From NCBI RefSeq assembly GCF_031456835.1, contig NZ_JAVDVK010000001.1:3100001-3164000 (forward strand): a stretch of DNA of 64,000 nucleotides. Direction: 5' to 3'. The position numbers and the translations under genes were made by a program. The DNA is from Leifsonia shinshuensis (GTDB lineage: Bacteria > Actinomycetota > Actinomycetes > Actinomycetales > Microbacteriaceae). Shown here piece after piece: positions 1 through 29,990 of this stretch. The notes below the pieces were generated by a model, which made no database searches, was not told where the DNA came from, and saw only the letters and a program-made list of their open reading frames with translations. Positions within the stretch are counted from its first letter, which is position 1. Each line of letters begins with the position of its first letter.

Positions 1-83
1 TTCGACTTAAGCCGTGGAAAAAGAATAGCATCTGCCAACGGCTAACATGGCCCAAAGGACAAATGATTTGTAGATCGGACAGT

Positions 84-1823: not shown

Positions 1824-1830
1824 GCGCTGA

Positions 1831-2118
1831 TCACCGCATCCGGCGCGCCGCTTCGACCGCTGGGACAAACAAGCGCAGGTCGCCTCGGCGTTCCGCTTCC
1901 GCCAAGAGGGTGGATAGGTCGGGGTCGAGCCCATTGCGCAGTGCTCGCGCAGTCGAGTCCGGTTGATACCCGAGCTCCCGGATGGCTGTGAGTACGCGAT
2001 CGCGCGTGCTCGGGCTCACCGCGCGCGAACCGTTGACCACTCGAGAGACCGTCTGCGCCGACACGCCAGCGAGCGCAGCGACATCGCGGATCGTGGGCCG
2101 ACGGGCTGCAGGCGACAT
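1831..2118 (-). pseudogene. LacI-family regulator reduced to its DNA-binding domain
   Basis: The 95-residue frame begins with a complete LacI helix-turn-helix and hinge ([20 protein letters not shown], then [20 protein letters not shown]). After about residue 63 it has 30 unrelated residues and a stop, whereas family members run 330-350 residues with a sugar-binding domain. It converges on the GH35 gene and diverges from the epimerase at 2194. It may be a 3' deletion product. Alternatively it may be a mini-regulator that still binds DNA but cannot sense inducer. The start codon and HTH look intact. Confidence 0.6.
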
Positions 2119-2193
2119 GCGGGCATTTTATCCCCGTATGCAAGTTAAATGCGAGGGATGCATGGAATATGCGTTCTGTGGAAGGATCGTTAC

Positions 2194-3186: not shown

Positions 3187-3187
3187 G

Positions 3188-4177
3188 ATGATCCGGTCGG
3201 ACGGACTGCGTTGGGGGATCCTGGGAACCGGCGTCATCGCGAGTTTGATGGTCGGCGATTTGCAGAGGGATGGTCACGTCGTGGCCGCCGTCGGCTCCCG
3301 CCGGCCGGAAGTGGCGGCCGCGTTCGCGGAGAAACACGAGATCCCACAGTCGCATGGCAGCTACGAGGAGCTGGTCGGGAATCCCGCTGTCGACATCGTG
3401 TACGTCGCCACTCCCCATGTGCTGCACCTCCCGAACGCGCTTCTGGCGCTCTCCGCTGGGAAGCACGTGCTTGTGGAGAAGCCGTTCACGATGGACGCGG
3501 ACGAGGCTGGTCGGCTCGCCGCAGCGTCCCGCTCGGCGGGTCTTGTGGCGATGGAGGCCATGTGGACGCGGTGGTTGCCGCACATGAACCGCATCCGTGA
3601 GCTCGTGGCTGCCGGCGCCCTGGGGGAACTGCGTACGGTCGTCGCGCACCACGGCCGACGCGTCGTGGCGCCGCCGACGGACCGGATGTACGACGCACGC
3701 CTGGGCGGCGGCGCACTCCTGGACTCCGGCATCTATCCCGTCTCCTTCGCGTGGGACCTGCTGGGCGCGCCGATCGGCGTGGAAGCTGTGGCACATCTGA
3801 CGTCGACAGGGGTCGACCGCCAGACGTCAATGCTCCTCACCTACGAGACAGGGGCGACGGCCGCTCTGACGTGCGAACTGGACGCTGCGAATCTAAACAA
3901 CGCCGTGGTCGTCGGCACAGAGGCACGCATCGAGCTGGACGCTCCGTTCTTCGCACCGACGGGCTTCCGTCTGGTGGATGCGGGTGGGACGGTGATCGAG
4001 GAGTACCGGTCAGTGATCGAGGGTCGAGGAATGCAGTTCCAGGCACGTGCGATCGAGAGCGTCATCGCGAATGGGCAGGCGGGCGACCCGGTTCTCCCTC
4101 TGGATGAGAGCGTCGCCATCATGGGCACCGTGGACCTGATACGCGAGCGCATCGGCCTCACCTATCCCGCTCGCTGA
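3188..4177 (+). CDS. Gfo/Idh/MocA-family NAD(P)-dependent oxidoreductase
   Basis: 329 residues from the ATG at 3188, one base after the epimerase stop. The upstream in-frame extension lies inside the epimerase gene and is not used. Seen: Rossmann motif WGILGTGVIAS, the VATPHVLHLPNALLAL segment, the EKPF motif (HVLVEKPFTMD, near residue 100) that carries the conserved catalytic Lys, and a C-terminal alpha/beta domain with the GGGALLDSGIYPVSFAWDLLG dimer strand region. The family oxidises sugars, inositols or dihydrodiols. Its position as the last gene of the epimerase pair suggests sugar interconversion; the substrate is unknown. Confidence 0.88.
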   Translation: MIRSDGLRWGILGTGVIASLMVGDLQRDGHVVAAVGSRRPEVAAAFAEKHEIPQSHGSYEELVGNPAVDIVYVATPHVLHLPNALLALSAGKHVLVEKPFTMDADEAGRLAAASRSAGLVAMEAMWTRWLPHMNRIRELVAAGALGELRTVVAHHGRRVVAPPTDRMYDARLGGGALLDSGIYPVSFAWDLLGAPIGVEAVAHLTSTGVDRQTSMLLTYETGATAALTCELDAANLNNAVVVGTEARIELDAPFFAPTGFRLVDAGGTVIEEYRSVIEGRGMQFQARAIESVIANGQAGDPVLPLDESVAIMGTVDLIRERIGLTYPAR

Positions 4178-4282
4178 CTGCGAGCACTATGAACACAACG
4201 CGCGCCACCTGATCGTCCCTTCTTACGGTTGTCCCACCCGTTCCCGCGGGTCACCGTAGACATCACAGAAGGACGACCCATC

Positions 4283-6902: not shown

Positions 6903-9161
6903 CTATGCATAGGCCCGGACGCTGACGACGCGGGCCAGCGGGTCGCCGTTCGTGCTCGTCACCACCACCCGCAGAGAAGATGTCTCGACAGGCCCGTCGA
7001 GGGTGTGGATGCGGTGACGGCGACGGTTCCCGGCGATGTCGGCGACGGTCTTCCATGCGCCATCGACGAGGGCTTCGATGCGGTAGTCGCGTACCAGTTG
7101 CGGGAAGACCCGGTGCGGGGTGCGGTGGTGGTGGAGCGTGTTGAGCTCGACATCCACGTCGTCGTCGAAAACGAGTCGAACGCTGCGGATGGTCTGCGGC
7201 TCCGCCCAGTCGAGCCGAAGCCACTCGGGCTCACCGTCGTTCATGGGTGTGGACGCCCAGATGTTCGGGCCTCCGTAGGGTCGCTGGTAGCCGCCCACCG
7301 CCCGAGCCGGAGCGTAGGCGTCGGTGGGCGGGTCGAGGCGTACGCGCAAGCCGTTGCCCCTGAGGATGTGGGCGGGCCACTGCACGAGCCGTTGGTCACC
7401 GTCGACAGCCACGTTCTCGTCGCCGTCGTCTTCCGTGCGATGGGTGAGAGCGAGCACCCCGGGAATGCTTGCCGCGACCCGGCGCACGGCCACTCCGTCA
7501 TGCGCGTGGAGCACCACGACGAGGTTCTCCGGTTGGGTGGGCGACCAGGTGAGCGGCAGTCGCAGCCACTGCTCGCCGGCAGACTCCATCAAGACGGAGA
7601 CCCGATCGAGCTCTGTGACGGGAACCGCATTCTGTCGCCGCCCGGTCGACCAGAGAGAGGCTGTGAAGCTCCCGGGGTTCTCGGCTCTGACGTAGACCTC
7701 AACGGCGTCCAGCCGAGGGTCCACCGGCACGAGCACGCCCAGGTCGAGGTCGAGGGGCAGCCACTCGCCCTCGTCGCAGCCGAGCGCATAAGGATCCACC
7801 TGGCGCAGCGAGGAAGACGCGGTCACGTTGGCGTTGCGGGCGAGGTCGGCCTCGTCGAGGTTGCGCACGCCGAACAGCGACGCATCCTGACGTAGCAGCA
7901 CCTGCTGGAGCTGATTGCTGTGAGTGGTCGCCAGCTCACGCGGTCGCACGCCCAGCTCGAGCGCGAGTGCGGCACCAGTGCCCGCTGCCTCTCCTCCCGC
8001 ACCGCAGGTTGCCATGACACGCGATGAACCGAAAGCCACGTGCGTCGCCGAGATGTCGCGTCCGGCGAGCAGCAGGTTCGCGACGTTCCGCGAGTAATAG
8101 CTGCGGAAGGGGATGCCGTAGATCCCGTCGGAGTAGCGCTGGTGCGCGCCTGAGGCGGTGGCGTACATGCCCTCGACGGGGTGAAGGTCGATCGACCAGC
8201 CGCCGAAGGCGACCGCGTCGGGGAAGTCGACCTGGTCCAGGATGTCGTTCTGCGTGAGCACATGGTCGCCGAGGAAGCGGCGGTACTCCCGCTTGCCTGG
8301 GAGGGCTCCCACCCACTCCAGGTCCAGGGTCGCGGCATCGAAACGGCCCGAGTTTTTGATGTAGTCCCAGATGCCGAAGATCACGGAGCGCAGTTCATCC
8401 CGGATGCGCTCGTTGTCGTGCACGATGTCGAGCTCACCGCCCCACTCGATCCACCAGTAGTGCGCGCCGCTGTCACCGCTGCGGATGATCCGTGATTCCG
8501 CGATAGGCGTGGTGCTGATGTCCTTCGCCGAGTCAGGAGCCACGAACTCGATGGGCTGGCCGACGTCCTTCGTATAGAAGAGGAGCGTCGAGCCCAGGAA
8601 TTCGTCGTCGGGAGTCTCCGGTGCCCAATCTTCGCCGAACTCATCCCGGCCCTCCCGGCCGAGCCGGTGTTCGGCACCGGCGAGGAACCCGACGAGTCCG
8701 TCGCCGGTGGCGTCGATCACGTAAGGTGCGATGAACTCCGTGTTGATTTCGGATCCCATCGTCCAGCCGTGGACGGCGGTCACGACTCGCTCTCCGTCGC
8801 GTGCTTCGGCGTCGACGCGCCGGACGTCGGTGTTGAGGAAGAGCTGGATGTTCGGTTCGGCGCGTACAGCATCCAGCACCACCTCGTCCCAATGGATGGG
8901 GTTGCCGCTGGGATTGCGGTACTGGTTCTCGACGTAGAGCTCGCCGATGACCCCGCTCTCCCGGGCGAATCGCTGCATGCCGTGCGCGGTCGCCCCGCAC
9001 ACCCAGACCCTCACTTCCGACGAGGAATTGCCTCCGAGCACCGGCCGGTTGTTGATCAATGCCACGGACCGGCCCAGCCGAGCCGCGGCGATCGCCGCGC
9101 AGACGCCGGCGAGTCCGCCGCCGACGACCACGATGTCGGTGTTCACTGTTCGTTCGAGCAT
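6903..9161 (-). CDS. FAD-dependent oxidoreductase (PF12831 type) with discoidin-like tail
   Basis: 752-residue flavoprotein. Seen: dinucleotide motif VVVGGGLAGVCAAIAAARLG at residues 9-28, then the family block PVLGGNSSSEVRVWVCG, and a later FAD motif YVIDATGDGLVGFLAGAEH. The last ~110 residues (WLRLDWAEPQTIRSVRLVFD onward) look like an F5/8-type beta-sandwich. The family includes oxidoreductases found beside sugar transporters in soil Actinobacteria; the substrates are mostly unassigned. It is the last gene of the leftward ABC operon, 53 nt after the binding-protein stop. No signal peptide is seen, so it is probably cytoplasmic and acts on whatever the transporter imports. Confidence 0.85.
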   Translation of the reverse strand: MLERTVNTDIVVVGGGLAGVCAAIAAARLGRSVALINNRPVLGGNSSSEVRVWVCGATAHGMQRFARESGVIGELYVENQYRNPSGNPIHWDEVVLDAVRAEPNIQLFLNTDVRRVDAEARDGERVVTAVHGWTMGSEINTEFIAPYVIDATGDGLVGFLAGAEHRLGREGRDEFGEDWAPETPDDEFLGSTLLFYTKDVGQPIEFVAPDSAKDISTTPIAESRIIRSGDSGAHYWWIEWGGELDIVHDNERIRDELRSVIFGIWDYIKNSGRFDAATLDLEWVGALPGKREYRRFLGDHVLTQNDILDQVDFPDAVAFGGWSIDLHPVEGMYATASGAHQRYSDGIYGIPFRSYYSRNVANLLLAGRDISATHVAFGSSRVMATCGAGGEAAGTGAALALELGVRPRELATTHSNQLQQVLLRQDASLFGVRNLDEADLARNANVTASSSLRQVDPYALGCDEGEWLPLDLDLGVLVPVDPRLDAVEVYVRAENPGSFTASLWSTGRRQNAVPVTELDRVSVLMESAGEQWLRLPLTWSPTQPENLVVVLHAHDGVAVRRVAASIPGVLALTHRTEDDGDENVAVDGDQRLVQWPAHILRGNGLRVRLDPPTDAYAPARAVGGYQRPYGGPNIWASTPMNDGEPEWLRLDWAEPQTIRSVRLVFDDDVDVELNTLHHHRTPHRVFPQLVRDYRIEALVDGAWKTVADIAGNRRRHRIHTLDGPVETSSLRVVVTSTNGDPLARVVSVRAYA

Positions 9162-9214: not shown

Positions 9215-10513
9215 TCAGCCGATGAGGGATTGGACCTTCTGTCCGGCGACCTTCATCGCGTCGGCCGGCTTGGCCGAACCGATGAGAACCGCCTGCACTT
9301 GCTCGGCGATCGCGGTCTCCATTTGGCTGTACTGCACGTACTTCCAGAGGGGGGAGGCTGCCGCGTCCTTGGTGACCTTCTCCGTGAAGGCGTTGACGAA
9401 CGCGTTCCCGGTGACCGAGGACGACTCGAGCGCGTCCGAGGTGGTCGGCGGCAGGCCGAGGGCGGTGAAGTAGCTCACCGTCTGGGCCGGGTCGCTTGTC
9501 AGCCATTGGGCGAACTCGCCCGCAGTCCCCGCTCCGGTGCCGTTGACCACGACGACGAGGTGGCCCCAGAGCAGTTCGATGGGCGTGGACCCGCTCTTGA
9601 GGACAGGCCGGGCAAGCGGGGACATCTTGCTGCCGATGGACTTGTCCGGGCTGTTCGCGATGATGCCTGCGCGCCCCACGGGAGCGTCGTCGTAGACGGC
9701 GGTCTTGCCCTGCGCGAAGAGCGACCGGGCCGCTGCGCGGTCGACGTCGGCCGCGATCAGGCCGTCGTCGAACAGCTTCTTATACCAGGTGACCGCCTTC
9801 ACCGACGCGTCGTCGCCGATGGTGCACTTGCCCTTTTCGATGATCGGCGAACCGAAAGTCTGCATCCACGTCACGATGTCCTTCAGCTGGGCCGTCTTCG
9901 TGGACGCCGCGTAGGGCACCAGACCGCCGCCGAGCCCCTTGAGCGCGCGCAGGCCGTCCTCGAACTCCTCGATGGTGGCGGGGGCGGGGTTTGCTCCCGC
10001 CTTCTGGTAGAGCTCCGTGTTGGTGATGAGTCCGATCGCCGCGATGGTCCAGGGGAGCCCGAGCTGCTTCCCGTTGAAGCTGCCCGCCTTCAGCGCTGCG
10101 TCGGTGTAACCGCGGCCCTTGGTGAGCGAGCCCAGGTCGTTCAGCTTGCCCAGAGCGGCGAGGCTGGACAGCCACGCCACGTCCAGCTGTGCTGCGCCCG
10201 TGAACTGGCCTCCGCGCACCTGCAGCGTGAGTTGGTTGAAGTAGTCGTTGTAGGGATAGCTCGGCGTCTTGATCGAGACTCCGTCCTTCTTGGCGAAGGC
10301 GTCGATCGACGGAGCCAGTGCGAGCTTGGTCGCCGGCTCCGACATGCCCCAGGAGGCGAACGAGAAGTCGGTGGGCTTGCCGGGTGTGATGCTCGCGCCG
10401 GCACCGGCGCCAGCCGTGCCGGTCGAGCACGCGGTGAGGCTGGCCAGCGCGATGCCGCCGAGTCCGATGCCGGCGTAGCGGAACATGTCCCTGCGGGACA
10501 GCTGTGCAGTCAT
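9215..10513 (-). CDS. ABC sugar-binding lipoprotein with Tat signal
   Basis: 432 residues from the ATG at 10513, preceded by AAAGGAGAA. A longer in-frame reading runs back through the permease gene and is an artefact. The signal has a twin-arginine motif (SRRDMFRYAG), a hydrophobic stretch and a lipobox (SLTAC), so it should fold before Tat export and be lipid-anchored. The mature part is a family-1 extracellular solute-binding protein (for example LNDLGSLTKGRGY; KQLGLPWTIAAIGLITNTELY). It is the third gene of the permease-permease-binding protein-FAD operon. No ATPase gene is present locally, so a shared MsiK-like ATPase elsewhere is likely (inference). A tatBAC set lies 2.8 kb away. Confidence 0.92.
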   Translation of the reverse strand: MTAQLSRRDMFRYAGIGLGGIALASLTACSTGTAGAGAGASITPGKPTDFSFASWGMSEPATKLALAPSIDAFAKKDGVSIKTPSYPYNDYFNQLTLQVRGGQFTGAAQLDVAWLSSLAALGKLNDLGSLTKGRGYTDAALKAGSFNGKQLGLPWTIAAIGLITNTELYQKAGANPAPATIEEFEDGLRALKGLGGGLVPYAASTKTAQLKDIVTWMQTFGSPIIEKGKCTIGDDASVKAVTWYKKLFDDGLIAADVDRAAARSLFAQGKTAVYDDAPVGRAGIIANSPDKSIGSKMSPLARPVLKSGSTPIELLWGHLVVVVNGTGAGTAGEFAQWLTSDPAQTVSYFTALGLPPTTSDALESSSVTGNAFVNAFTEKVTKDAAASPLWKYVQYSQMETAIAEQVQAVLIGSAKPADAMKVAGQKVQSLIG

Positions 10514-10566: not shown

Positions 10567-11466
10567 TCAGCCTTTGACAGCGCCGGCGGTGATTCCGCCG
10601 ACGAGGTAGCGCTGAAGCAGGATGAACGCCGCGGCGACGGGCACGGAGACGAGCAGGGACGCTGCCATCAGTTCGGGCCACGACGTCGACGCCTCGCTGA
10701 TGTACGTGTTGACGAGTCCTGGCGGAAGGGTCTGCTTCTCGGGACCGGCGAGCGTGAGCGCGAACATGAAGTCGTTCCACCCACGGACGAAGGCGAACAG
10801 GCCGGCGGCGACGAGGCCCGGGGCGGCCAGCGGGAGCACGACCGAATGGAAGGTGCGCCACGGGCCCGCGCCGTCGATCTTGGCCGCTTCGATCAGGTCG
10901 TCGGGCAGCGTGTCGAAGAACCCCTTGAGCATCCAGACGCACAGCGGCAGGGTGAACGTCGTGAACGAGATGATCAGCGCCTGGTAGGTGTTCAGCAGAC
11001 CGAACTGGGCGAAGACCACGTACAGGGTCACCAGCAGGAGCGCCTGCGGGAACATCTGGCTCGAGAGCACGAAGTACATCAGTGACTTGCGTCCCCGGAA
11101 GCGGAACTTCGAGAACGCGTATCCCATGTACATCGACACGACGACCGAGAGCACGGCCGTGATGATCGAGACGAGGATGCTGTTGCAGAGGTATCCGAAA
11201 ATGGCCGGGTTCGCCAGCACGCTCGCGTAGTGCTGGAACGTCACGGCGCTCGGCACCAGCTTCGGGGGGTAGGCGAACACCTGATCGGTGGGGGTCAGAG
11301 ACGTCACGGCGAGCCAGTAGATCGGCAGGAACGTGAAGAGCGCCAGAACGACGAGGGCGATCCAGAGAGCCCAGCGCGGGCGGCCCTTCCTGCCCCGCCG
11401 GGGTGCGGCGGCTTCCGGTGCCAGGGAGTCCGCGACAGCGGCTTCGGTGTCGAGCATCGTGGTCAT
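10567..11466 (-). CDS. ABC sugar permease, MalG type
   Basis: 299 residues with about six membrane segments. The first is ALWIALVVLALFTFLPIYWL near residue 33. The cytoplasmic EAA loop that docks the ATPase is present (LIEAAKIDGAGPWRTFHSVV, near residue 190). The C-terminus (ILLQRYLVGGITAGAVKG) is typical of MalG/UgpE-like permeases. It starts at an ATG 11 nt downstream of the MalF-type stop and leads into the binding-protein gene, so all are in one leftward transcript. Confidence 0.93.
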   Translation of the reverse strand: MTTMLDTEAAVADSLAPEAAAPRRGRKGRPRWALWIALVVLALFTFLPIYWLAVTSLTPTDQVFAYPPKLVPSAVTFQHYASVLANPAIFGYLCNSILVSIITAVLSVVVSMYMGYAFSKFRFRGRKSLMYFVLSSQMFPQALLLVTLYVVFAQFGLLNTYQALIISFTTFTLPLCVWMLKGFFDTLPDDLIEAAKIDGAGPWRTFHSVVLPLAAPGLVAAGLFAFVRGWNDFMFALTLAGPEKQTLPPGLVNTYISEASTSWPELMAASLLVSVPVAAAFILLQRYLVGGITAGAVKG

Positions 11467-11477: not shown

Positions 11478-12386
11478 TCAGTTCTTCTCGCCGCGTTCGG
11501 AGAAGCGCACGTAGACCACGACGAGGATGAGCAGCAGCACCATCCAGAGCAGTCCGAGCGCGCCCGCGTGGCCGAGGTCGTACGCCTTAAAGGCGGTGTC
11601 GTAGACCTGGGTGGCGAAGGTCTGGGTGCTTCCGGCGGGACCGCCGCCGGTGAGTACGAAGATGGTGTCGAAGTGCTGGAAGTTCCAGATGAACTCAAGC
11701 AGGACGACGAGGCCCGCGACGCCGCGGATGTGCGGCCACGTGACGGTGAAGAAGCGGCGGACGGTGCCGGCGCCGTCCATCGAGGCGGCCTCATGCAGTT
11801 CGCCGGGAACGGTCTGCAGCCCGGCGAGGAGCATCACCATGATCCACGGAAACGAGTTCCACGACTTCGCGACGATCAGTGCGGTCCGTGCTGTGTCGGT
11901 GTTGAAGAGCCAGGCGACCGGGTGGTTGATCAGGTGCAGTTGCTGCAGCACTCCGTTCAGAACGCCGTAGTTGGCGTCGAAGATCCACATCCAGAGGAAG
12001 GACACCACGACGCTGGGCAGCAACCAGGGGATGAGGAAGGCGCCGCGGAGGAACCGCTGTCCGCGGAAGCGCTGGTTGAGCACCAGGGCGAGCGCCATTC
12101 CGAGCACGAATGGCACGATCGTCGATCCGACCGTGAAAATCAGGGTTTGGCCGAGGAGGCTCCAGAAGCCGTCGCGCAGGACATCAGCGATGTTCTTGAA
12201 TCCGACCCAGGTTGCGCCGGGGTAGACGAGGCTCTCGGAGAAGAAGGCCGAAGCAAGCGAGCGCAGGAGCGGGTAGAGGACGACGCCGACGAGGAGCGCG
12301 GTCCCGGGTAGAAGGAGCAGCGTCACGAAGCGGAGTTCTGATAGGCGACCCGGTCGTGCCGGGGCGTAGGCGGACTTGATCTGCAT
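11478..12386 (-). CDS. ABC sugar permease, MalF type
   Basis: 302 residues from the ATG at 12386 (MQIKSAYAPARPGRLSELRF), preceded by GGATGG. The longer frame back to 12458 would start inside the operator region. Six hydrophobic segments are visible, beginning with VTLLLLPGTALLVGVVLYPLL. The EAA loop reads LHEAASMDGAGTVRRFFTVT. It is the first gene of the leftward operon and diverges from the IclR gene at 12512. The intergenic segment holds a 13-bp perfect inverted repeat that probably controls both directions. Confidence 0.92.
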   Translation of the reverse strand: MQIKSAYAPARPGRLSELRFVTLLLLPGTALLVGVVLYPLLRSLASAFFSESLVYPGATWVGFKNIADVLRDGFWSLLGQTLIFTVGSTIVPFVLGMALALVLNQRFRGQRFLRGAFLIPWLLPSVVVSFLWMWIFDANYGVLNGVLQQLHLINHPVAWLFNTDTARTALIVAKSWNSFPWIMVMLLAGLQTVPGELHEAASMDGAGTVRRFFTVTWPHIRGVAGLVVLLEFIWNFQHFDTIFVLTGGGPAGSTQTFATQVYDTAFKAYDLGHAGALGLLWMVLLLILVVVYVRFSERGEKN

Positions 12387-12412: not shown

Positions 12413-12447
12413 ATGCGTACTGTGCATGACTATGGCACAGTACGCAT
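12413..12447. promoter_or_regulatory. Perfect 13-bp inverted repeat, probable IclR operator
   Basis: ATGCGTACTGTGC (12413-12425) and GCACAGTACGCAT (12435-12447) are exact reverse complements around the 9-nt spacer ATGACTATG. The element lies midway in the 125-bp gap between the divergent MalF-type and IclR genes, where an autoregulating IclR protein would act. Operator function is inferred from position and symmetry. Confidence 0.75.
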
Positions 12448-12511
12448 GCTACGCTCAAGCTTGGTCGCGAACTTCTGATGAGACGGGCGGCCCCACAAGG
12501 AGGTGATCTTC

Positions 12512-13279
12512 GTGTCGATGGTGCGCGGAAGCAACCACAGCGTCGAGAAGGCGGTCGCTGTGCTCGGCGTGCTCGCGGGGGGCCAGCCGCAGCGCGTCGG
12601 CGACATCTCGAATGCGACCCACCTCGGCCAGTCGACGGTTTCGCGACTACTCGCCACCCTCGAGTCGGCCGCTTTCATCGAGCGGGACGGAGGCTCTGGG
12701 CACTTCTCGCTCGGCCCCGACCTGATCACGCTCGCCGGCGTGGCCGCGAACCAGCACCCGCTGTTCCGCGCTTCCCGGCAGGTCGCTCAGAACCTTGCGT
12801 TCCGCCTAGGGGTTGGTGTTGCGGTGGCGGTGCGGCGTGGCGACGCCGCGTTCTACCTGCTGGATTTCGAAGGGCCGGACGCCCCGCGCAATCGCACGCT
12901 CGCCGGCCAGCGCGACCCGCTTCACGCCACGGCGGTCGGCAAATGTCTGCTGCTCGGGCTGCTGCCGGGCGAACGCGGGTCCCTGCTCGGGAACCTCCGA
13001 CCTCTGACGGCGCGGACGATCACCGACCATCGACGGCTCGACGCTGAGCTGTCGCTCGCGGAGCGACGTGGCTATGTCACAGAGATCGAGGAGCTCGGAC
13101 TGGGCCGCGCCGGTCTGGCGGCTCCCATCCGGGACGCCGGAGGAGCCGTTCGCGGAGCGCTCGGCATCTCCGGCCCGCTCTCTGTGCTGCGGCTGGATGA
13201 ACGTGAGAGCGAGTACGCAACTGCGGCGATCGAATCTGCCGAGCGCATCGGTTCGGCCGTCGGCTACGTCGGAGCTTAG
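12512..13279 (+). CDS. IclR-family transcriptional regulator
   Basis: 255 residues. The start is the GTG at 12512 because AAGGAGG at 12497-12503 is 8 nt upstream; an earlier GTG at 12503 overlaps that ribosome site. Winged helix at residues ~10-65 (HSVEKAVAVLGVLAGGQPQR; LGQSTVSRLLATLES). The effector domain follows, with the conserved DPLHATAVGKCLL motif and LGRAGLAAPI. It diverges from the ABC/FAD operon and is followed after 10 nt by tatB. About half its residues match the second IclR at 14680, so the two are paralogues with probably related ligands and operators. Confidence 0.92.
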   Translation: MSMVRGSNHSVEKAVAVLGVLAGGQPQRVGDISNATHLGQSTVSRLLATLESAAFIERDGGSGHFSLGPDLITLAGVAANQHPLFRASRQVAQNLAFRLGVGVAVAVRRGDAAFYLLDFEGPDAPRNRTLAGQRDPLHATAVGKCLLLGLLPGERGSLLGNLRPLTARTITDHRRLDAELSLAERRGYVTEIEELGLGRAGLAAPIRDAGGAVRGALGISGPLSVLRLDERESEYATAAIESAERIGSAVGYVGA

Positions 13280-13289
13280 GAGGGTGCAC

Positions 13290-13583
13290 ATGTTCGGACT
13301 CACGATGGACAAGCTCGTGGTGATCGGCGTAATCGCCGCGTTCGTCATCGGACCTCAGCGTCTCCCGCGAGCCGCAGCGGCTCTGGCCCAACTCACCAGG
13401 CGTGTGCGTGACTACACCGGTACCGCGCGCGAGCGGCTGAGCGATGAGCTCGGTCCTGAATTCCGGGAGATCGAGTGGGAGAAACTCGATCCCCGGCAGT
13501 ACGACCCACGACGCATCATCCAGGATGCGCTGCGGGACGATTCACACACCGATAAAACACCCGATCCGTCACGGAGGTCCTAA
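13290..13583 (+). CDS. tatB: Sec-independent translocase TatB-like subunit
   Basis: 97 residues from the ATG at 13290, 6 nt after AGGAGG, which itself begins one base before the end of the iclR stop. One N-terminal membrane helix (MDKLVVIGVIAAFVIGPQRL) is followed by the GPxRLP hinge and a long charged amphipathic helix (LAQLTRRVRDYTGTARERL), the TatB pattern. TatB with TatC forms the twin-arginine receptor. It lies between an IclR gene and tatA and shares the operon. Confidence 0.85.
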   Translation: MFGLTMDKLVVIGVIAAFVIGPQRLPRAAAALAQLTRRVRDYTGTARERLSDELGPEFREIEWEKLDPRQYDPRRIIQDALRDDSHTDKTPDPSRRS

Positions 13584-13584
13584 C

Positions 13585-13776
13585 ATGCTCGCGAATCTCA
13601 ACGGATGGCACGCCGTCCTCATCCTCGCTGTCGTCCTGCTACTCTTCGGCGCGCCGAAGATCCCGGCGCTCGCGCGGAGTCTCGGCCAGTCGATGCGCAT
13701 CTTCCGCTCGGAGGTCAAGAGCGCCGACGTGCCCGCAACCGAGGTCGGCGATGCCGACGCTTCGCCGCGCGCCTGA
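13585..13776 (+). CDS. tatA: Sec-independent translocase TatA-like subunit
   Basis: 63 residues from the ATG at 13585, preceded by GGAGG, starting one base after the tatB stop. A single helix (WHAVLILAVVLLLFGAPKIP) contains the Phe-Gly hinge. An amphipathic helix (ALARSLGQSMRIFRSEVKS) and a short acidic tail follow. TatA subunits form the transient translocation pore. The order tatB-tatA-tatC differs from the usual tatABC, and the tail is short. Confidence 0.88.
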   Translation: MLANLNGWHAVLILAVVLLLFGAPKIPALARSLGQSMRIFRSEVKSADVPATEVGDADASPRA

Positions 13777-13819
13777 GAGAGGGGTTCGGGCGGCGCGTTC
13801 CGTGCGCCGTGAGGCCGCG

Positions 13820-14569
13820 ATGCCGATTGCCTCGCATCTCGCGGAACTGCGCCGACGGCTGTTCGTGTCCGGCGCGGCGATCCTCGTCGGCGCCGTGATC
13901 GGCTGGCTCGTGTCCGAACCGGTCTGGGCCTTTCTCTCTTCGCCGATCCACGCGTTCGCGGCCGAGCACGGTCGCGTCGCCGCGATCAACTTCGACACCA
14001 TCACGGGTGCGTTCGATCTGCGTATGCAGCTGGCCATCCAGCTGGGCGTGATTCTCTCGGCGCCGGTCTGGCTGTACCAAGTGTTCGCGTTCGTCGTCCC
14101 CGGGCTCACGCGAGCGGAGACCCGGGCCGGCCTGCTCTTCGTCGGGTTGTCCGTGCCGCTGTTCGCGGCCGGCGCGTCGGCGGGGGTGTGGGTGCTGCCC
14201 CACATTGTCGAACTGATGGCCGGATTCGCGCCTGATTCATCCGCGACGCTGGTCACCGCAGGCGGCTACTACGACTTCGTCCTCAAGCTCGTGCTCGCCG
14301 TCGGCATAGCTTTCGTGCTGCCGGCGTTCCTGGTGATCCTCAACCGCATCGGCATCCTGTCAGGTTCCACCATCCTGCATGCGTGGCGCCTCGCGATCAT
14401 GGCGATCGCCCTGTTCACGGCGGTGGCCACACCTGCCGCCGACGTCTTTTCCATGCTTCTGCTCGCGGCGCCGATGGTGTGCCTCTATTTCGGCGCCGCG
14501 GGCGTATCGATTGTGCACGACCGCCGCCTCGAGCGGCGGCGCGCGAAAGAGTTCGCTCTCCTGCCGTGA
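13820..14569 (+). CDS. tatC: Sec-independent translocase TatC subunit
   Basis: 249 residues from the ATG at 13820 (GAGG 5 nt upstream). GTG 13802 and ATG 13751, which overlaps tatA, are alternatives. The N-terminus PIASHLAELRRRLF is the TatC signature that contacts the twin-arginine motif. Six membrane segments follow, including WLYQVFAFVVPGLTRAETRAG and VLAVGIAFVLPAFLVILNRIG. The C-terminus is short and basic. With the two genes before it this makes a complete translocase, directly beside an operon encoding a Tat-signal binding protein. Confidence 0.93.
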   Translation: MPIASHLAELRRRLFVSGAAILVGAVIGWLVSEPVWAFLSSPIHAFAAEHGRVAAINFDTITGAFDLRMQLAIQLGVILSAPVWLYQVFAFVVPGLTRAETRAGLLFVGLSVPLFAAGASAGVWVLPHIVELMAGFAPDSSATLVTAGGYYDFVLKLVLAVGIAFVLPAFLVILNRIGILSGSTILHAWRLAIMAIALFTAVATPAADVFSMLLLAAPMVCLYFGAAGVSIVHDRRLERRRAKEFALLP

Positions 14570-14578
14570 GCGGACGCA

Positions 14579-14614
14579 GGGGGCGCCGGCGGTGTGGTGG
14601 CCGTCGGAGCCCCC
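14579..14614 (+). terminator. Hairpin after tatC
   Basis: GGGGGC-CCGGCGG pairs with CCGTCGG-GCCCCC through an almost continuous 13-bp stem with one wobble and a small internal mismatch. It starts 9 nt after the tatC stop and ends 65 nt before the next iclR gene, so it probably closes the iclR-tatBAC transcript. Confidence 0.6.
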
Positions 14615-14635
14615 AGGCTCGATTTGCATTCCCTG

Positions 14636-14651
14636 TGCATAATATGCATAT
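14636..14651. promoter_or_regulatory. AT-rich palindrome upstream of second iclR
   Basis: TGCATA-A-TATGCA (14636-14648) overlaps the perfect palindrome ATATGCATAT (14642-14651) about 30 bp before the iclR ATG. The run stands out from the GC-rich surroundings. It is a candidate -10 region or operator for autoregulation. Confidence 0.4.
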
Positions 14652-14679
14652 TCCCTTCGAATTCCTCTAGGCTGGAGAC

Positions 14680-15453
14680 ATGCAGGCACCTCCCGGAAAC
14701 ATCCAGAGCGTTGGAAAAGCGGTCGCGATCCTGCGTGTCTTCGAAAACGGTCAGCCGCAGCGCGTCTCCGATGTCGCCCGCGCGGCGCAGATCGGCCAAT
14801 CCACCGCCTCGAGGCTGCTCAGCACGCTGGAAGCTGCCGGTCTTCTCGAGCGCGATCCGGTCGCAAACCTGTACAGGCTCGGGCCGGACATGATCACGCT
14901 GGGGGGAGTGGCGCTCAACCAGCACCCGCTGTTCCGAGGGTCGCGGCAAACACTGCAGAACCTCGCCGGCCGCCTCGGTTTGGGCGCCAATGTCGCGATC
15001 CGACGAGAAAACAGCGTTCTCTATCTGGCCAACTTCGAGGGCCCCGAAGCCCCCAGGAACCACACGATCGCCGGGCGCCGCGATCCGCTGCATGCGACCA
15101 GCATGGGCAAGTGCCTTCTTCTCAGCGTCCCGGTCGAAGAGCGAGCAGCGCTGCTCGGAGAACTGGTCCGCTACACATCGGCGACGATCACCGACCTGGA
15201 TGCTCTCAATGAGGCTGTCGACGAGGTCGAGCGGCGCGGCTTCGCAGTCGATGTCGACGAATTCGCGCTGGGCCGGGCGAGTGTCGCCGCCCCCATTCGG
15301 GATGCTCAGGGGGCGGTGATAGGGGCGATGTCGATCTCCGGCCCCGCCACCGCGCTCCGGCTGGATGAGCGACAGGGGGAGCTCGCGGCGATCGTCGTCG
15401 AGACCGCCGACCGCATCGGCTCCGGTCTGGGGTACACGGCCGCGATCGCCTGA
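14680..15453 (+). CDS. IclR-family transcriptional regulator (second copy)
   Basis: 257 residues from the ATG at 14680. Winged helix: IQSVGKAVAILRVFENGQPQ and IGQSTASRLLSTLEAAGLLE. The effector domain has FEGPEAPRNHTIAGRRDPLH and TSMGKCLLL. Its layout and roughly half its residues match the IclR at 12512, including GQPQRV, NQHPLFR and RDPLHAT, so it is a paralogue, not a chance neighbour. Its target could be the same ABC/FAD operon or the oxidase gene at 15817 (inference). Confidence 0.92.
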   Translation: MQAPPGNIQSVGKAVAILRVFENGQPQRVSDVARAAQIGQSTASRLLSTLEAAGLLERDPVANLYRLGPDMITLGGVALNQHPLFRGSRQTLQNLAGRLGLGANVAIRRENSVLYLANFEGPEAPRNHTIAGRRDPLHATSMGKCLLLSVPVEERAALLGELVRYTSATITDLDALNEAVDEVERRGFAVDVDEFALGRASVAAPIRDAQGAVIGAMSISGPATALRLDERQGELAAIVVETADRIGSGLGYTAAIA

Positions 15454-15474: not shown

Positions 15475-15612
15475 TCAGCGCATCTCGAGAATCTCGACCA
15501 TCTGCGTCGCACTCCAGGCATTGAGCAGCAGGAGATCGCCGGGGTTCAGCTGACGCTCGGTCGTTTTCTTCGCCTGGTGGGCGCGGGTTACGGCCAGAGC
15601 CGGCGTAGACAT
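15475..15612 (-). CDS. Possible 45-residue protein of unknown function
   Basis: An ATG-to-TGA frame on the minus strand encodes 45 residues ending GDLLLLNAWSATQMVEILEMR. It fills most of the gap between the second iclR and the oxidase gene. Residue content is balanced and the frame lacks the Arg/Pro bias of shadow ORFs. No good ribosome site is seen before the ATG, and I recognise no family. It could be a real microprotein or the end of a lost gene. Confidence 0.35.
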   Translation of the reverse strand: MSTPALAVTRAHQAKKTTERQLNPGDLLLLNAWSATQMVEILEMR

Positions 15613-15816
15613 CGGTGCTCAATTTCTGCGGTTAGGGGGAGGCCGTTCCGCGTAGGTCGCTCAAGCGACACCTCGCGCTTTGTGCGCATTCTGATCGCGG
15701 TGGCCGGCTTCGGCTGCGGACTAGGCATTGTGGCCAGTCGTAGCTGGGAGCGCCGATCCCAGACTGGAGCCACGGACAGAGGCTCTGTCCTTGACAAACT
15801 CGAAAGGACAGACTTC

Positions 15817-17229
15817 GTGAGCTCTGCACTGTCGCCGTCCGCCGTCGCCGACCTCCGGGACCGACTGACGGGCCACGCCTTCCTCCCCGGCGACCCGGGC
15901 TACCCGGCCGAGACGGCCCCGTGGGACGCATCCATCCGAATCGCCTCGCCAGTGACGGTCATCCCGGCGAGCACCGCCGACATTACGACCGCGGCGCAGT
16001 GGGCCCGTGACCACGGACTTCACGTCGGCGTCCTCAACACCGGTCACGGCATCCTCGACGATCAGCACGACTCGCTGCTCCTCCACACCGCAAGCCTCGG
16101 CGGGGTCCGGTTCGACCCGGCTTCTCGCACCGCGATGGTCCAGCCCGGCGCCCGATGGTCGGACGTGCAGGCCCTGGCCAACCCGCACGGTCAGACCGGC
16201 GTCTGTGGCGCGATGCCCGGTGTCGGAGTCGTCGGCTACACCCTTGGCGGCGGCCTGAGTCCCATCGGCCGCAGCTTCGGTATGGGCGCCGATCGCGTCC
16301 GTCGGATTCGGGTGCTCGACGCCGACTACACACCGATCGATGTGACCGCGGAAAGCGACCCGGAACTGTTCTGGGCGCTACGCGGCGGAGGCGGGTTCGG
16401 TCTCGTGACCGAACTCGAATTCGAGACCGTCGAGGTGCCCGCCCTCTTCGGCGGTGGAGTGTACTTCTCGGGCGCGCACGCAGAGCAGGTGCTGACGGCA
16501 TACCGGGAGTGGGTAGGCATCCTGGATGAGCGCACCAGCACCTCCATCGCTCTGCTGCACCTTCCTCCGGTACCCGCGCTGCCCGATCTCCTCCGCGGGC
16601 AGTACGTGGTGCACCTCCGCATCGCGCACATCGATCCGACAGTGTCCTCTCTGGAGGCGGCGGGACGAGCCATCCTCGCCCCGATGCTGGCTGCCGCGCC
16701 GGTGCTGAACGACTACACGCATCGCATGACCCCCGACCAGTTGCCGGACATCCACCGCGACCCCGTCGCGCCCATGCCGGTCGCATACCGCGGCGGGGGG
16801 AGGCACGACCTCGACGACGACGCGATCGCGTCGATCGTGGCCTCGGCATCTCCGCAGGACGGCCTCGCTCCCGCGGCGATCGAGATCCGTCACCTGGGCG
16901 GAGCGATGTCCCGGCCGACCGCCGCTCCCAACAGCGCGACGGCGCGCAGCACGACCTTCCACGTCTGGGCGAGCTCGCCCGTGGATCTGGCCGATCCTCA
17001 GCGGTACCGCCGGCTCGTCGACGACGTCGTCGAACGGGCGGGAGCCACGAGCGACGGCGCGCAGTTGAGCTTCTATGGACCGGACCCGGAGCCCGGTGCG
17101 TTCCAGCGTCTTTGGGGCGAGTCGGATGCCGGCCGGCTGCGGGCGGTCGTCCAGCGGATCGACCCGGACGGCCGGATCCGCACCGGTCGCTCGTACTCCG
17201 CCGCAGTCGAGTCGGCAGGTGCTCGATGA
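15817..17229 (+). CDS. FAD-linked oxidase, BBE (berberine bridge enzyme-like) family
   Basis: 470 residues from the GTG at 15817, with AAGGA 8 nt upstream; about 240 nt of longer frame lack coding character. FAD-binding domain at residues ~40-210. Both covalent flavin anchors look present: His in NTGHGILDD and Cys in TGVCGAMPGVGVVGYTLGGG, so bicovalent FAD is expected. The C-terminus has FYGPDPEPGAFQRLWG and no strict NYxD motif of plant BBEs. Such enzymes oxidise sugars or alcohols to acids with O2. No signal peptide is seen. The substrate is unknown; the nearby IclR and two-component genes suggest induced catabolism. Confidence 0.85.
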   Translation: MSSALSPSAVADLRDRLTGHAFLPGDPGYPAETAPWDASIRIASPVTVIPASTADITTAAQWARDHGLHVGVLNTGHGILDDQHDSLLLHTASLGGVRFDPASRTAMVQPGARWSDVQALANPHGQTGVCGAMPGVGVVGYTLGGGLSPIGRSFGMGADRVRRIRVLDADYTPIDVTAESDPELFWALRGGGGFGLVTELEFETVEVPALFGGGVYFSGAHAEQVLTAYREWVGILDERTSTSIALLHLPPVPALPDLLRGQYVVHLRIAHIDPTVSSLEAAGRAILAPMLAAAPVLNDYTHRMTPDQLPDIHRDPVAPMPVAYRGGGRHDLDDDAIASIVASASPQDGLAPAAIEIRHLGGAMSRPTAAPNSATARSTTFHVWASSPVDLADPQRYRRLVDDVVERAGATSDGAQLSFYGPDPEPGAFQRLWGESDAGRLRAVVQRIDPDGRIRTGRSYSAAVESAGAR

Positions 17230-17399
17230 GCACTACGACCAGAAGTCGAACCGAGCGGGGAAGGCATCGCAATCTGGAGTCACCCCGGCGGACGAAGACT
17301 CCGGCGGCGGTGGGAGAAACGGTTCTTCACCGGCGCTTCCCCGCCGCCGTCGGACAGCGGCCGGGCGCACACCGCCGTCACACCTTCCAGGAGCGCTCC

Positions 17400-17867
17400 G
17401 TGAACCACTCGACCGCCGACGACCGCGACTTCGACACCGCCCGACTGGCTTCGGCGATCCTGGTGCGGCACAACGAGCTCGCCGTCTCCCTCGCCGCTCA
17501 CGCGAACGGGCTCTTGCAGGCTGCCGAGATCTCCGACGAGGTGGCCGCTCGTCGACACCGTCGCGCCGTCGGCGAGTGGTTCCGCGACCGGCTGGATCCC
17601 GCTCTCGAGGAGGCCACCGGCGCGGCCATGGGCATGATCGCTTCGGGAGCGCCGGATTCTGGGGTCGCCATCCTCGGCCGCGTCGTCGCACTGCGCCACG
17701 CAGCGAGCGACCTGGAGAGCGCGACCTGCGCCCGGGACGCGGCGATGGAGGTCATCCAGCTCCGGGTGCAATTGCACCAGCTACTGCGCATCCTCGAAAT
17801 GGAATCGGTCACCCGGTTGCTGACGCAGCTGCGGCCTGGTCCGGTCCAACTCCGTCCGCCATGCTGA
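17400..17867 (+). CDS. Unknown helical protein preceding a sensor kinase
   Basis: 155 residues from the GTG at 17400, with AGGAG 6 nt upstream. No signal or membrane segment is seen. The sequence is almost wholly helix-forming (TARLASAILVRHNELAVSLA; CARDAAMEVIQLRVQLHQLL), with a probable coiled coil near the end. It overlaps the histidine kinase start by 7 nt, so translation is coupled and it may modulate that system. I do not recognise the family. Confidence 0.7.
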   Translation: MNHSTADDRDFDTARLASAILVRHNELAVSLAAHANGLLQAAEISDEVAARRHRRAVGEWFRDRLDPALEEATGAAMGMIASGAPDSGVAILGRVVALRHAASDLESATCARDAAMEVIQLRVQLHQLLRILEMESVTRLLTQLRPGPVQLRPPC

Positions 17868-19456
17868 AGCGACGGCGTGGCTCTGTGGCGACGCGGCTCT
17901 TCCTCTGGCAGGGGGTCGCGATCGTGGTCGTCACCGTCGTGGTCTTCCTCCTCACGTTGAACGGATCCGCGACGGACGCCGAACGCGCCGCCGCCGGCCG
18001 CTCCATGGCGGCGGCGAAGGCCATCGCACATAATCCGTACATCGACTCTGCGCTCTCGGGCACCGATCCCGGTGCGGTGCTCGGGCCGTACGGCAAGGAG
18101 CTGGTGCACGACTCGGACATCAGCTTTCTCAGCATGTTCGGGGCCGATGGGGAACTCTACAGTCACTCGGTTCCGGACGGCATCGGCACATCGTTCTCGG
18201 AGTATGGACCTGCGCTGCGCGGAGAGTCGTACAGCCAGGCCTACACCGGTCCCCTGGGTCCTGCAGTTCGTTCCGTCGTGCCGGTCCGCGACCCCGACGG
18301 CGCTGTCGCGGGGGTGGTGGTGGCCGGCGTGGACCTCGACGACGTCCAGTCCTCCCTCGGCTCACGCATCCTCGTGCTGAGCCTCTCCGCGCTGGCCTTC
18401 CTCCTCATCGCCGGCTTCGGGACATGGATACTCAGCCGCTACCTGCGCCGGGTCACCCATGGGCGCGGGGCCGAGGAGCTCAGCAGGATGTCCCAGTTCT
18501 ACGAGAGCGCCCTTCATGCCCTAGACGAGGGACTCCTCTTGCTGGACAGCCGGCACCGGGTCGTGCTCGCCAACGATCGCGCGGCGCGCCTGCTCGGGCT
18601 GCGGCACGCCCCGAGCATCGACAACCCCTCGAGCTTGGCCGAACTGGACGCCCCCGCCGCCCTGGTGGAGCTCGTCTCCCGCGAGGGGCGGCTGGACGAC
18701 GCGGCGATCGTCACGGACGATCGAGTCCTGCTCATCAACAGCGAGCCCGTCGCCGGACGCGGCCACGATCGTACCCGGATCGTGGGTGCCGTCGTGACAG
18801 TACGCGATCGCACTCGGCTTCAGGAGCTCACCGGTCAGCTGGAGAACAACGCCGTCCTCACCGACGCCCTGCGCGCCCAAGCCCACGAGTTCGCCAACCG
18901 CCTCCACACCATCATCGCCTTGATGGAACTCGGGCGGACGGACGACGCCATCGAGCTTGCCGGTTCCGAGGTCGGCATCGCGCAGGCGCTCGCGGACACG
19001 ATGGTCGACATCGCCGACGAGCCCGTCATCTCCGCGCTGCTGCTGGCGAAGTCAGCGCAGGCCAAAGAACGTGGCGTCACCCTGCAGATCGCGGCAACAG
19101 GCGCCCTGGACGAGCACACGATCGCACCGCGCGACCTCATCACCATCGTCGGGAATCTCATCGACAACGCGATCGACGCCGTCGCCCATCAGCCGCATGC
19201 CGAAGTGACGGTCGGGATCCGAGGAAACGAGCGCGAACTCGTCATCGCGGTGTCCGACTCAGGACCCGGGCCGGAACCGCGCGAGGTCGCCCAGCTGTTC
19301 GAACTCGGCGTCACGACCAAGGCAGAGGGCGGCACGCGCGGTATCGGTCTCGCTCTTGTGAGGCAGACCGTGAGGCGCCTCGGGGGCACCATCGAGGTGC
19401 ACGACGCCGTCTTCACCGTCACACTTCCCGTGAGAGAGGAGGCGATTGCTCGATGA
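17861..19456 (+). CDS. Sensor histidine kinase, CitA/DcuS type
   Basis: 531 residues. Two membrane segments (FLWQGVAIVVVTVVVFLLTL at ~13-32 and LVLSLSALAFLLIAGFGTWI near 175) flank a periplasmic PDC-like sensor domain. A PAS-like domain follows (SALHALDEGLLLLDSRHRVV). The phosphoacceptor lies in AHEFANRLHTIIALMELG, the SpoB/CitA-class H-box. ATPase N box is NLIDNAIDAV; G boxes are SDSGPGPEPRE and GGTRGIGLALVRQ. Family members sense extracellular di- or tricarboxylates. It overlaps the upstream unknown gene by 7 nt and the regulator by 4 nt (ATGA). No carboxylate transporter gene is visible nearby. Confidence 0.92.
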   Translation: MLKRRRGSVATRLFLWQGVAIVVVTVVVFLLTLNGSATDAERAAAGRSMAAAKAIAHNPYIDSALSGTDPGAVLGPYGKELVHDSDISFLSMFGADGELYSHSVPDGIGTSFSEYGPALRGESYSQAYTGPLGPAVRSVVPVRDPDGAVAGVVVAGVDLDDVQSSLGSRILVLSLSALAFLLIAGFGTWILSRYLRRVTHGRGAEELSRMSQFYESALHALDEGLLLLDSRHRVVLANDRAARLLGLRHAPSIDNPSSLAELDAPAALVELVSREGRLDDAAIVTDDRVLLINSEPVAGRGHDRTRIVGAVVTVRDRTRLQELTGQLENNAVLTDALRAQAHEFANRLHTIIALMELGRTDDAIELAGSEVGIAQALADTMVDIADEPVISALLLAKSAQAKERGVTLQIAATGALDEHTIAPRDLITIVGNLIDNAIDAVAHQPHAEVTVGIRGNERELVIAVSDSGPGPEPREVAQLFELGVTTKAEGGTRGIGLALVRQTVRRLGGTIEVHDAVFTVTLPVREEAIAR

Positions 19457-20196
19457 CCGACGACATCCAGGTCCTCATCGTCGAAGACGAGGCGATCACC
19501 GCCGACGCGCACGCCGCGTACGTCGAACGACTCGACGGCTTTTCTGTGTCCGCGATCGCGCGTACCGGAGGGGCCGCCATCCGTGTGCTCCGCGCAGCCA
19601 GAGAAGCCGGCCGGCGCATCGACCTCCTCCTGCTGGACGTGCATCTTCCGGACATGACCGGCATCGACCTCTGTCGCTCTATGAGGGCTGCCGGTGTGGA
19701 GACCGACGTCATAGCGATCACGGCGGCGCGAGATGCAGCTACTGTACGCTCAGCGGTCGCTCTGGGAGTGGTCCAGTACCTGATCAAGCCGTTCACCTTC
19801 GCCGCGTTCGCGGAAAAGCTCCGGGCGTACAAGGCCTACCGGGAGAGCGTCCCGGTCCGGTACGCCGATCAAGGCACCGTCGACGCGGCTTTCGCTCAGC
19901 TGCGCAGCAACGCGGGGAATGTGGCCCTGCCCAAAGGTCTGAGTTCGCAGACTTTGTCGCTCGTGCGACGGGTCCTCAGGGAGAGCGACGGCGGGCTGAG
20001 CGCCGTGCAGGTGGCGCAACGGGCCGAGCTGTCGCGCCCGACGGCCCGTCGCTATCTGGATCACCTCGCCGACATCGGCGACGCGACCCGCTGCAACCGC
20101 TACGGCACTCCTGGCAGGCCGGAGATCGAGTACCAGCTCAACGGCATCCACGACCACGCCGGTCGGACGAGCGGTGAAGATGTCAGCGGATTGTAG
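19453..20196 (+). CDS. Response regulator, CitB/DctR type
   Basis: 247 residues. Receiver domain: VLIVEDEAITADAH (acidic pocket), phosphoacceptor Asp in DLLLLDVHLPDMTG (near residue 58), Thr/Ser switch ITAARD and Lys in YLIKPF. The C-terminal winged-helix-like DNA-binding region has QVAQRAELSRPTARRYLDHL and the family ending RYGTPGRPEIEYQL. It starts inside the kinase stop (ATGA), so it is the kinase's partner. It probably activates uptake or catabolism of an organic acid (inference). A decayed piece of a second regulator of this family lies at 33242. Confidence 0.93.
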   Translation: MTDDIQVLIVEDEAITADAHAAYVERLDGFSVSAIARTGGAAIRVLRAAREAGRRIDLLLLDVHLPDMTGIDLCRSMRAAGVETDVIAITAARDAATVRSAVALGVVQYLIKPFTFAAFAEKLRAYKAYRESVPVRYADQGTVDAAFAQLRSNAGNVALPKGLSSQTLSLVRRVLRESDGGLSAVQVAQRAELSRPTARRYLDHLADIGDATRCNRYGTPGRPEIEYQLNGIHDHAGRTSGEDVSGL

Positions 20197-29954: not shown

Positions 29955-29990
29955 GGTCGTTCACCCCCTGAATCGGGGGTGAACGACCTC
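29953..29990. terminator. Perfect 16-bp stem terminator
   Basis: GAGGTCGTTCACCCCC (29953-29968) and GGGGGTGAACGACCTC (29975-29990) are exact reverse complements around a 6-nt loop. The structure begins inside the stop codon of the 29724 gene and precedes the 30035 gene. It lacks a T-run but is by far the strongest hairpin in this stretch, and could work on either strand. Confidence 0.85.

What the first reader, a model, noticed from the sequence alone, without database searches (positions are those of the whole stretch)
12512..15453. IclR-TatB-TatA-TatC-IclR block beside an ABC importer with a Tat-signal binding protein
A complete Tat set with one-nucleotide tatB-tatA spacing sits inside a catabolic gene cluster, not in the usual chromosomal tat context, and is bracketed by two IclR paralogues (about half their residues the same). 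The divergent operon encodes a binding lipoprotein with SRRDMFRYAG and lipobox LTAC. A translocase carried and regulated with its own client would be a special-purpose Tat system. Subunit and signal identification follow family motifs; dedication to the client is inference.
Basis: partly seen in the sequence, partly recalled or inferred. Interest (0 to 1): 0.75.

Follow-up and report, generated by a model that had tools for sequence, protein, structure and literature searches.

The report
Sugar-importer cluster carrying its own Tat
An actinobacterium carries a second, complete set of genes for a folded-protein export machine inside a sugar-import cluster, next to an import protein that bears the signal for that machine, and relatives show similar pairings with other secreted proteins.

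Summary
IclR1-tatB-tatA-tatC-IclR2 lies at 12503-15453, divergent from permF-permG-SBP-FADox, and the SBP has a Tat-type lipoprotein signal. It is a second set: the genome also has tatA-tatC at 930 kb and tatB at 324 kb. A clade of window, L282 and own housekeeping TatC is rejected (AU p 2.8e-5).

The pairing recurs. Of 57 TatC loci with tatB nearby, 46 have a predicted Tat client within 5 kb, against 8 of 127 housekeeping-context loci; collapsed at 70% TatC identity, 25 of 32 against 4 of 25. The detector was tuned, not blind.

Strict dedication is not supported. Of 398 family genomes, 20 hold this SBP or a relative (34-100% identical); all 20 have an RR signal, and 18 have one TatC. One of those, G359, has a lone tatA at the same spot.

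Best reading: a client-linked, probably inducible Tat set adding export capacity for its neighbour, a variant of the Bacillus TatAdCd-PhoD arrangement. The repeated pattern is the interesting part.

The parts
6903..9161 (-). FAD_oxidored (PF12831) protein with a C-terminal F5/8 type C domain; no signal peptide seen by eye
9215..10513 (-). SBP_bac_8 solute-binding lipoprotein with Tat-type signal MTAQLSRRDMFRYAG...LTAC; predicted Tat client
   Evidence: 3 of 23 SBP_bac_8 proteins of the genome have an RR lipoprotein signal by the rule
10567..11466 (-). ABC importer permease (BPD_transp_1), permG
11478..12386 (-). ABC importer permease (BPD_transp_1), permF; longest ORF begins at TTG 12458, likely ATG 12386
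12413..12447 (.). perfect 13-bp inverted repeat with 9-bp spacer in the divergent promoter; core GTGCATGACTAT.GCA conserved in L326 and L308; operator-like, untested
12503..13279 (+). IclR1 regulator (start 12503, 12512 or 12518)
13290..13583 (+). TatB, 97 aa; 10 nt after IclR1 with AGGAGG between
13585..13776 (+). TatA, 63 aa, 1 nt after TatB
13820..14569 (+). TatC (alternative starts 13802 and 13751, the last overlapping tatA)
14634..14648 (.). palindrome-like TGTGCATAATATGCA upstream of IclR2; operator-like, untested
14680..15453 (+). IclR2 regulator; 79% identical to the IclR of the orthologous locus L326

Best explanation
A complete accessory Tat translocase (TatB, TatA, TatC) was acquired between the IclR gene and the divergent importer operon of a carbohydrate-type ABC cluster. 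When the cluster is induced, the cell makes the importer, its folded Tat-dependent binding lipoprotein, and extra Tat translocase together, so a surge of this client does not overload the housekeeping Tat. Shown: gene content, second copy, separate TatC lineage, conserved client pairing, conserved repeat in the promoter. Inferred: induction through IclR, export of the SBP by this set, and capacity rather than exclusive specificity as the benefit.
For: Second set. Same client and similar layout in G151 (L282/L326): SBP 75% identical, IclR2 79%, permF 84%, and TatC sister to the window's, support 99/93. Family-wide association with a nearby Tat client: 46 of 57 loci against 8 of 127 within 5 kb, and 27 of 57 against 0 of 127 within 1.5 kb. 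Hand-assigned client type follows TatC lineage: 13 changes for 43 labelled rows and 9 states, 300 shuffles 22 to 28. RR lipoprotein signals are uncommon among this genome's SBP_bac_8 proteins, 3 of 23. Inverted repeat in the divergent promoter, core conserved in two other loci. Clusters without tatBAC still have RR-type SBPs, which fits a capacity role. A lone tatA at the same place in G359 fits benefit from dosage of one component. TatC keeps the HLxELR motif and a loop glutamate aligned with solved TatC chains.
Against: No expression or export data. 18 of 20 genomes with this SBP or a relative have only one TatC. The same genome has a second clear RR-type SBP, at 742 kb, with no TatC near it. 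The client detector was rebuilt twice after I had looked at accessory loci; the first version gave a weaker contrast, 28 of 57 against 31 of 142. 11 of 57 loci have no detected client within 5 kb. The group G000+G151+G359 has moderate support (82/97). IclR binding to the repeat is a guess.
Confidence: 0.6

Rival explanations
1. A truly orthogonal translocase: the accessory TatBC has diverged to recognise this SBP's signal or fold, and the housekeeping Tat of this strain no longer exports it well.
For: TatC lineages track hand-assigned client types; accessory TatC of G000 and G151 are 58.7% identical while their housekeeping TatCs are 67.2%; client signal nearly unchanged between the two loci.
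Against: RR-type SBP relatives occur in 18 genomes with a single TatC. Accessory TatA is the better conserved of the TatA pairs, 85% over 48 aa against 57% over 75 aa for housekeeping TatA, so not all subunits changed faster. Faster change of TatC also fits relaxed constraint. Whole loci are inherited together, so the label test does not separate co-evolution from co-inheritance.
Confidence: 0.2
2. Linkage without functional partnership: catabolic clusters are mobile and rich in Tat-signal proteins, and tat sets were inserted there for other reasons, serving as a general second Tat.
For: Tat sets occur on plasmids; 11 of 57 have no detected client within 5 kb; gene order varies (ACB, BAC, ABC, divergent).
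Against: Same client kept beside the set in another genus-level group; 27 of 57 loci have a client within 1.5 kb against 0 of 127; association survives collapsing similar TatCs at 65, 70 and 80%; 3 of 23 SBP_bac_8 proteins of this genome are RR lipoproteins.
Confidence: 0.15
3. Decaying or unexpressed remnant.
For: G359 keeps only a tatA at the orthologous place.
Against: All three window genes are intact with tight spacing and an AGGAGG before tatB; TatC relatives at 84-87% identity exist among JGI-sourced proteins.
Confidence: 0.05

Closest known systems
Bacillus subtilis TatAdCd with PhoD
   Same: A second Tat set with a particular substrate, phoD near the tatC locus, tied to phosphate availability (PMC3827258, passages read).
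   Different: Here three subunits including TatB, a binding lipoprotein as predicted client, IclR regulators, and the pairing recurs with several client types in one actinobacterial family.
Bacilli tatCy operons near efeB/ywbN
   Same: Tat genes near a known Tat substrate gene (PMC3827258, passages read).
   Different: Different phylum, client and subunit set.
Multiple tatC loci reported in Actinobacteria (Microbacterium testaceum, Xylanimonas and others)
   Same: Two TatC loci per genome in Table 2 of PMC3827258 (passage read).
   Different: In the passages and the one section I read, the mapping of substrate genes around tatC is described for Bacilli only.
Curtobacterium sp. TC1 plasmid pTCL GH32 cluster
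   Same: LacI, Tat-type SBP, two permeases, GH32, kinase, tatC, tatA, a TatB-like gene annotated as hypothetical, and a GH32 with an RR signal in a row.
   Different: Different client, regulator and gene order; on a plasmid. Whether its chromosome has another Tat set was not examined.

Membership tests
TatABC-type Tat translocase | TatC family protein | tested here: met
   PF00902 178.3 bits, full length; aligns with solved TatC chains 4b4a and 9dzz
TatABC-type Tat translocase | TatA family protein | tested here: met
   PF02416 61.3 bits
TatABC-type Tat translocase | TatB | tested here: met
   Under the Pfam cut-off (19.0 of 21), but 62% identical over 85 aa to the genome's other TatB, which is over it (23.3 bits)
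TatABC-type Tat translocase | Exports folded RR-signal proteins | not testable with these tools
   no experiment
Substrate-dedicated Tat system (TatAdCd type) | Second Tat set in the genome | tested here: met
Substrate-dedicated Tat system (TatAdCd type) | Predicted Tat substrate gene close by, conserved with the set | tested here: met
   window and L282/L326
Substrate-dedicated Tat system (TatAdCd type) | Co-regulation with the substrate | tested here: inconclusive
   shared divergent promoter with a conserved inverted repeat; no expression data
Substrate-dedicated Tat system (TatAdCd type) | Substrate needs this set | tested here: inconclusive
   18 of 20 genomes with the SBP or a relative have one TatC only, so presumably not needed there; unknown in this strain
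IclR regulator | HTH_IclR and IclR_C domains | tested here: met
   both proteins
Tat-exported solute-binding lipoprotein | RR motif, h-region, lipobox, SBP domain | tested here: met
   sequence, domain; export itself not tested

The most novel reading that the evidence does not exclude
In Microbacteriaceae, Tat is modular: catabolic and redox gene clusters repeatedly carry their own complete TatABC set, each lineage tuned to its cluster's client, and move with it between chromosomes and plasmids.
Probability: 0.3. Interest if true: 0.8.

Novelty: new variant of a known kind. Interest (0 to 1): 0.6.

Why it matters
Tat is usually treated as one general machine per cell. A family in which complete Tat sets repeatedly sit beside particular clients gives natural pairs for testing what sets Tat capacity and specificity. 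The series no Tat / tatA only / tatBAC at one orthologous cluster is a ready experiment on which subunit limits export.

Tried and rejected
Recent duplication of the genome's own tat genes: rejected. TatC is 54.6% identical to the own housekeeping TatC, and the best tree holding window, L282 and own TatC together has AU p 2.8e-5 (that group was chosen after a tree had been seen). FAD oxidoreductase as the client: no signal peptide seen by eye in the ORF. Gene 15577-17229 (FAD_binding_4) as client: no convincing signal by eye. Foreign composition: GC of 12.5-15.5 kb is 0.66-0.68, within the 0.63-0.71 around it. No tandem repeats at 6-22 kb. No sigma-70 promoter match at 9-16 kb; 5 terminator-like sites against 3.3 expected. 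TIGR01409 for finding clients is too weak here: 9 matches at E <= 10 in the genome, none at the window SBP. The base rate of RR signals among SBPs could not be extended beyond G000, because loci were not cut out.

Client detector history: the first version gave 28 of 57 against 31 of 142 within 5 kb and missed clients in merged ORFs such as the window SBP. The second had a faulty coding filter and found 0 of 57 against 5 of 142. The third is the one reported (46 of 57 against 18 of 142, before the housekeeping split). It still missed L054's melibiase (seen) and the clients of L202 and L209 (seen). Some of its hits look like false ones by eye. A first labelling of housekeeping context was contaminated by antisense ORFs and was replaced.

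Not done: no structure prediction, no RNA family search, no scan of metagenome or viral contigs.
Full report
OBSERVATION. The block is present as described. On the plus strand IclR1 (12503-13279), TatB (13290-13583), TatA (13585-13776), TatC (likely 13820-14569) and IclR2 (14680-15453) follow one another; TatB and TatA are one nucleotide apart and IclR1 is 10 nt before TatB. Pfam confirms both IclR proteins, TatA and TatC. TatB is under the Pfam cut-off but 62% identical over 85 residues to the genome's other TatB. The minus-strand operon is permF, permG, an SBP_bac_8 lipoprotein and a FAD oxidoreductase; the SBP starts MTAQLSRRDMFRYAGIGLGGIALASLTAC.

A SECOND SET. The genome is one contig of 3,788,128 bases. 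PF00902 finds two TatC genes, at 930 kb and in the window. PF02416 finds three proteins over its cut-off: TatA at 931 kb, the window TatA, and a TatB at 324 kb (sequence). So a housekeeping Tat exists elsewhere, split over two places, and the window set is extra. Accessory and housekeeping TatC are 54.6% identical, and holding window, L282 and own housekeeping TatC as a clade is rejected.

HOW COMMON. In the 28 genomes held for the genus, 12 have more than one TatC match. In 398 genomes drawn from the family, 53 list two or more matches by my count of the listing. Nine of these (G036, G104, G149, G173, G279, G280, G361, G372, G378) have as their extra only fragments, a match under the cut-off, or an equal-scoring copy near the other end of one contig, leaving 44. 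The family is Microbacteriaceae judging by the named relatives; no call named the window's own genus.

ANATOMY OF ACCESSORY SETS. I used 199 TatC loci, of 9-21 kb apart from the 64-kb window: window, L033-L072, L106-L176, L201-L287 (L177 dropped as a distant outlier). L106-L176 were picked by similarity to the window's TatC, and 87 others come from multi-TatC genomes, so this is not a random sample. Of the 199, 57 have a TatB profile hit within 3 kb (ACB 31, BAC 7, ABC 7 and others), 139 are AC and 3 are C alone. With a pafB/C-like or helicase neighbour as the housekeeping mark, 127 of the 142 without TatB are housekeeping and 15 are not; 2 of the 57 with TatB (L160, L266) also sit in that context. 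Some named and unnamed loci may be the same genome (L143 and L223 have identical TatC).

CLIENT LINKAGE. A rule for Tat signals (RR motif, uncharged hydrophobic stretch, cleavage site, coding-like GC3) was run on both sets. Loci with a predicted client within 1.5, 3 and 5 kb of tatC: 27, 37 and 46 of 57 with TatB; 0, 8 and 8 of 127 housekeeping; 9, 9 and 10 of the 15 others. Nine of those 15 have an RR protein 0.2-0.4 kb away whose signal resembles the ferritin-like clients of L057 and L228. Collapsed into clusters by TatC identity: at 65%, 15 of 19 against 1 of 9 (p 0.0012); at 70%, 25 of 32 against 4 of 25 (p 3.5e-6); at 80%, 35 of 44 against 4 of 36. The rule was revised after I had looked at accessory loci, so the contrast is not blind; the same rule was applied to both sets, and an earlier version gave a weaker contrast. 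Client families, from Pfam on one representative each or a few: Dioxygenase_C lipoprotein, Ferritin_2, GH32, GH127, Melibiase, SBP_bac_5, SBP_bac_8, DUF3502-type binding protein, short-chain dehydrogenase. On a TatC tree of 68 rows, 43 rows labelled with 9 client types need 13 changes; 300 shuffles gave 22 to 28. I assigned these labels by hand, many from resemblance of signal or locus only. Related species share loci, so this shows co-inheritance rather than co-evolution.

THE WINDOW'S OWN LOCUS IN RELATIVES. G151 (contig length 816,191 equals that of a Leifsonia flava TatC record, so probably that species) has tatB-tatA-tatC-IclR divergent from permF-permG-SBP-FADox. It lacks the IclR1 position upstream of tatB. 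Identities to the window: permF 84%, permG 82%, IclR2 79%, SBP 75%, FADox 71%, TatB 61%, TatC 59%, TatA 85% over 48 aa. The same two genomes' housekeeping TatCs are 67% and TatAs 57% identical. The two accessory TatCs are sisters (99/93). Among 398 genomes, 20 hold this SBP or a relative at E <= 1e-60: own, 14 at 56-75% and 5 at 34-41% identity. All 20 have an RR lipoprotein signal, and 18 have one TatC match in the genome. Of the 19 other genomes, 17 show no Tat profile hit in the fetched 20 kb, G151 has the trio, and G359 has one hit, a lone tatA-like ORF (GTG 7234 to 7040 of L308) between IclR and permF. A tree of SBP+permF+permG puts G000, G151 and G359 together (82/97). That fits one gain with tatB and tatC missing in G359, but gain and loss cannot be told apart firmly.

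REGULATION. The permF-IclR1 gap holds a perfect inverted repeat ATGCGTACTGTGC-9-GCACAGTACGCAT at 12413-12447, one of three such places (arms of 13, spacer up to 12) in the 64-kb window and none in five mononucleotide shuffles. GTGCATGACTAT.GCA occurs once in the window and at the same place in L326 and L308. A related palindrome lies before IclR2. That IclR binds these is inference.

MOBILITY. tblastn of this TatC finds 12 plasmid records; I looked at four of the 12. Curtobacterium sp. TC1 pTCL carries LacI, SBP, two permeases, GH32, kinase, tatC, tatA, a TatB-like protein annotated as hypothetical, and another GH32. The SBP and the last GH32 have RR signals (by eye); the GH32 before the kinase has none. 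Citricoccus and Kocuria plasmids carry tatA, tatC and tatB beside a polysaccharide deacetylase and an ABC importer whose SBP has an RR signal. A Streptomyces xanthophaeus plasmid has tatA-tatC next to mevalonate genes; no client was looked for there.

BASE RATE. Of the 23 SBP_bac_8 proteins in this genome, 3 have an RR lipoprotein signal by the rule: the window SBP, one at 742 kb with a clear motif, and L183 with a weak one. Two others (L188, L197) have RR that does not fit the rule; the rest read as Sec-type lipoprotein signals by eye.

LITERATURE. Simone et al. 2013 (PMC3827258; abstract, passages and one section read) list two TatC loci in Microbacterium testaceum and other Actinobacteria, describe PhoD as specific to TatAdCd, and describe mapping of genes around tatC for Bacilli. 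Seven searches for Tat sets beside clients listed no title or abstract start that describes this in Actinobacteria. The listings were partial: 20 of 76, 20 of 28, 0 of 0, 15 of 96, 6 of 6, 12 of 20 and 4 of 4. The library is open-access only, and I read no other paper.

JUDGEMENT. I favour an inducible capacity booster (0.6) over an orthogonal translocase (0.2), chance linkage (0.15) or a remnant (0.05).

Noticed in passing
L308 7040-7234 (G359): A lone intact tatA-like ORF (GTG start) sits between IclR and permF of the orthologous importer cluster, with no tatB or tatC beside it.
   Followed up: partly
L327 (Curtobacterium plasmid pTCL): A GH32 cluster with importer and tatC-tatA-tatB on a plasmid; the TatB-like gene is annotated as hypothetical protein.
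   Followed up: partly
L218 8793-9815 and about 17 loci with a similar signal: A roughly 300-340 aa lipoprotein with an FDIRTLVSRR-like signal (Dioxygenase_C in L218, the only one scanned) lies beside tat sets in many loci, the commonest client pairing seen.
   Followed up: partly
window 29953-29990: Perfect inverted repeat with 16-bp arms, GAGGTCGTTCACCCCC; function not examined.
   Followed up: no
window 17075-20196: Frames with a Cache-domain sensor kinase and a response regulator, like a two-component system, downstream of the block.
   Followed up: no
window 63-6631: GH35 beta-galactosidase-like, epimerase, Gfo/Idh/MocA oxidoreductase and a CWB2-repeat protein with a poly-arginine N-terminal signal, next to the importer operon.
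   Followed up: no
L285 (G422): Two adjacent RR-signal proteins (MSRRTLLKALAASSVAVGIGAAAAPAASA) 4-5 kb from an accessory tatA-tatC-tatB set; family not scanned.
   Followed up: no
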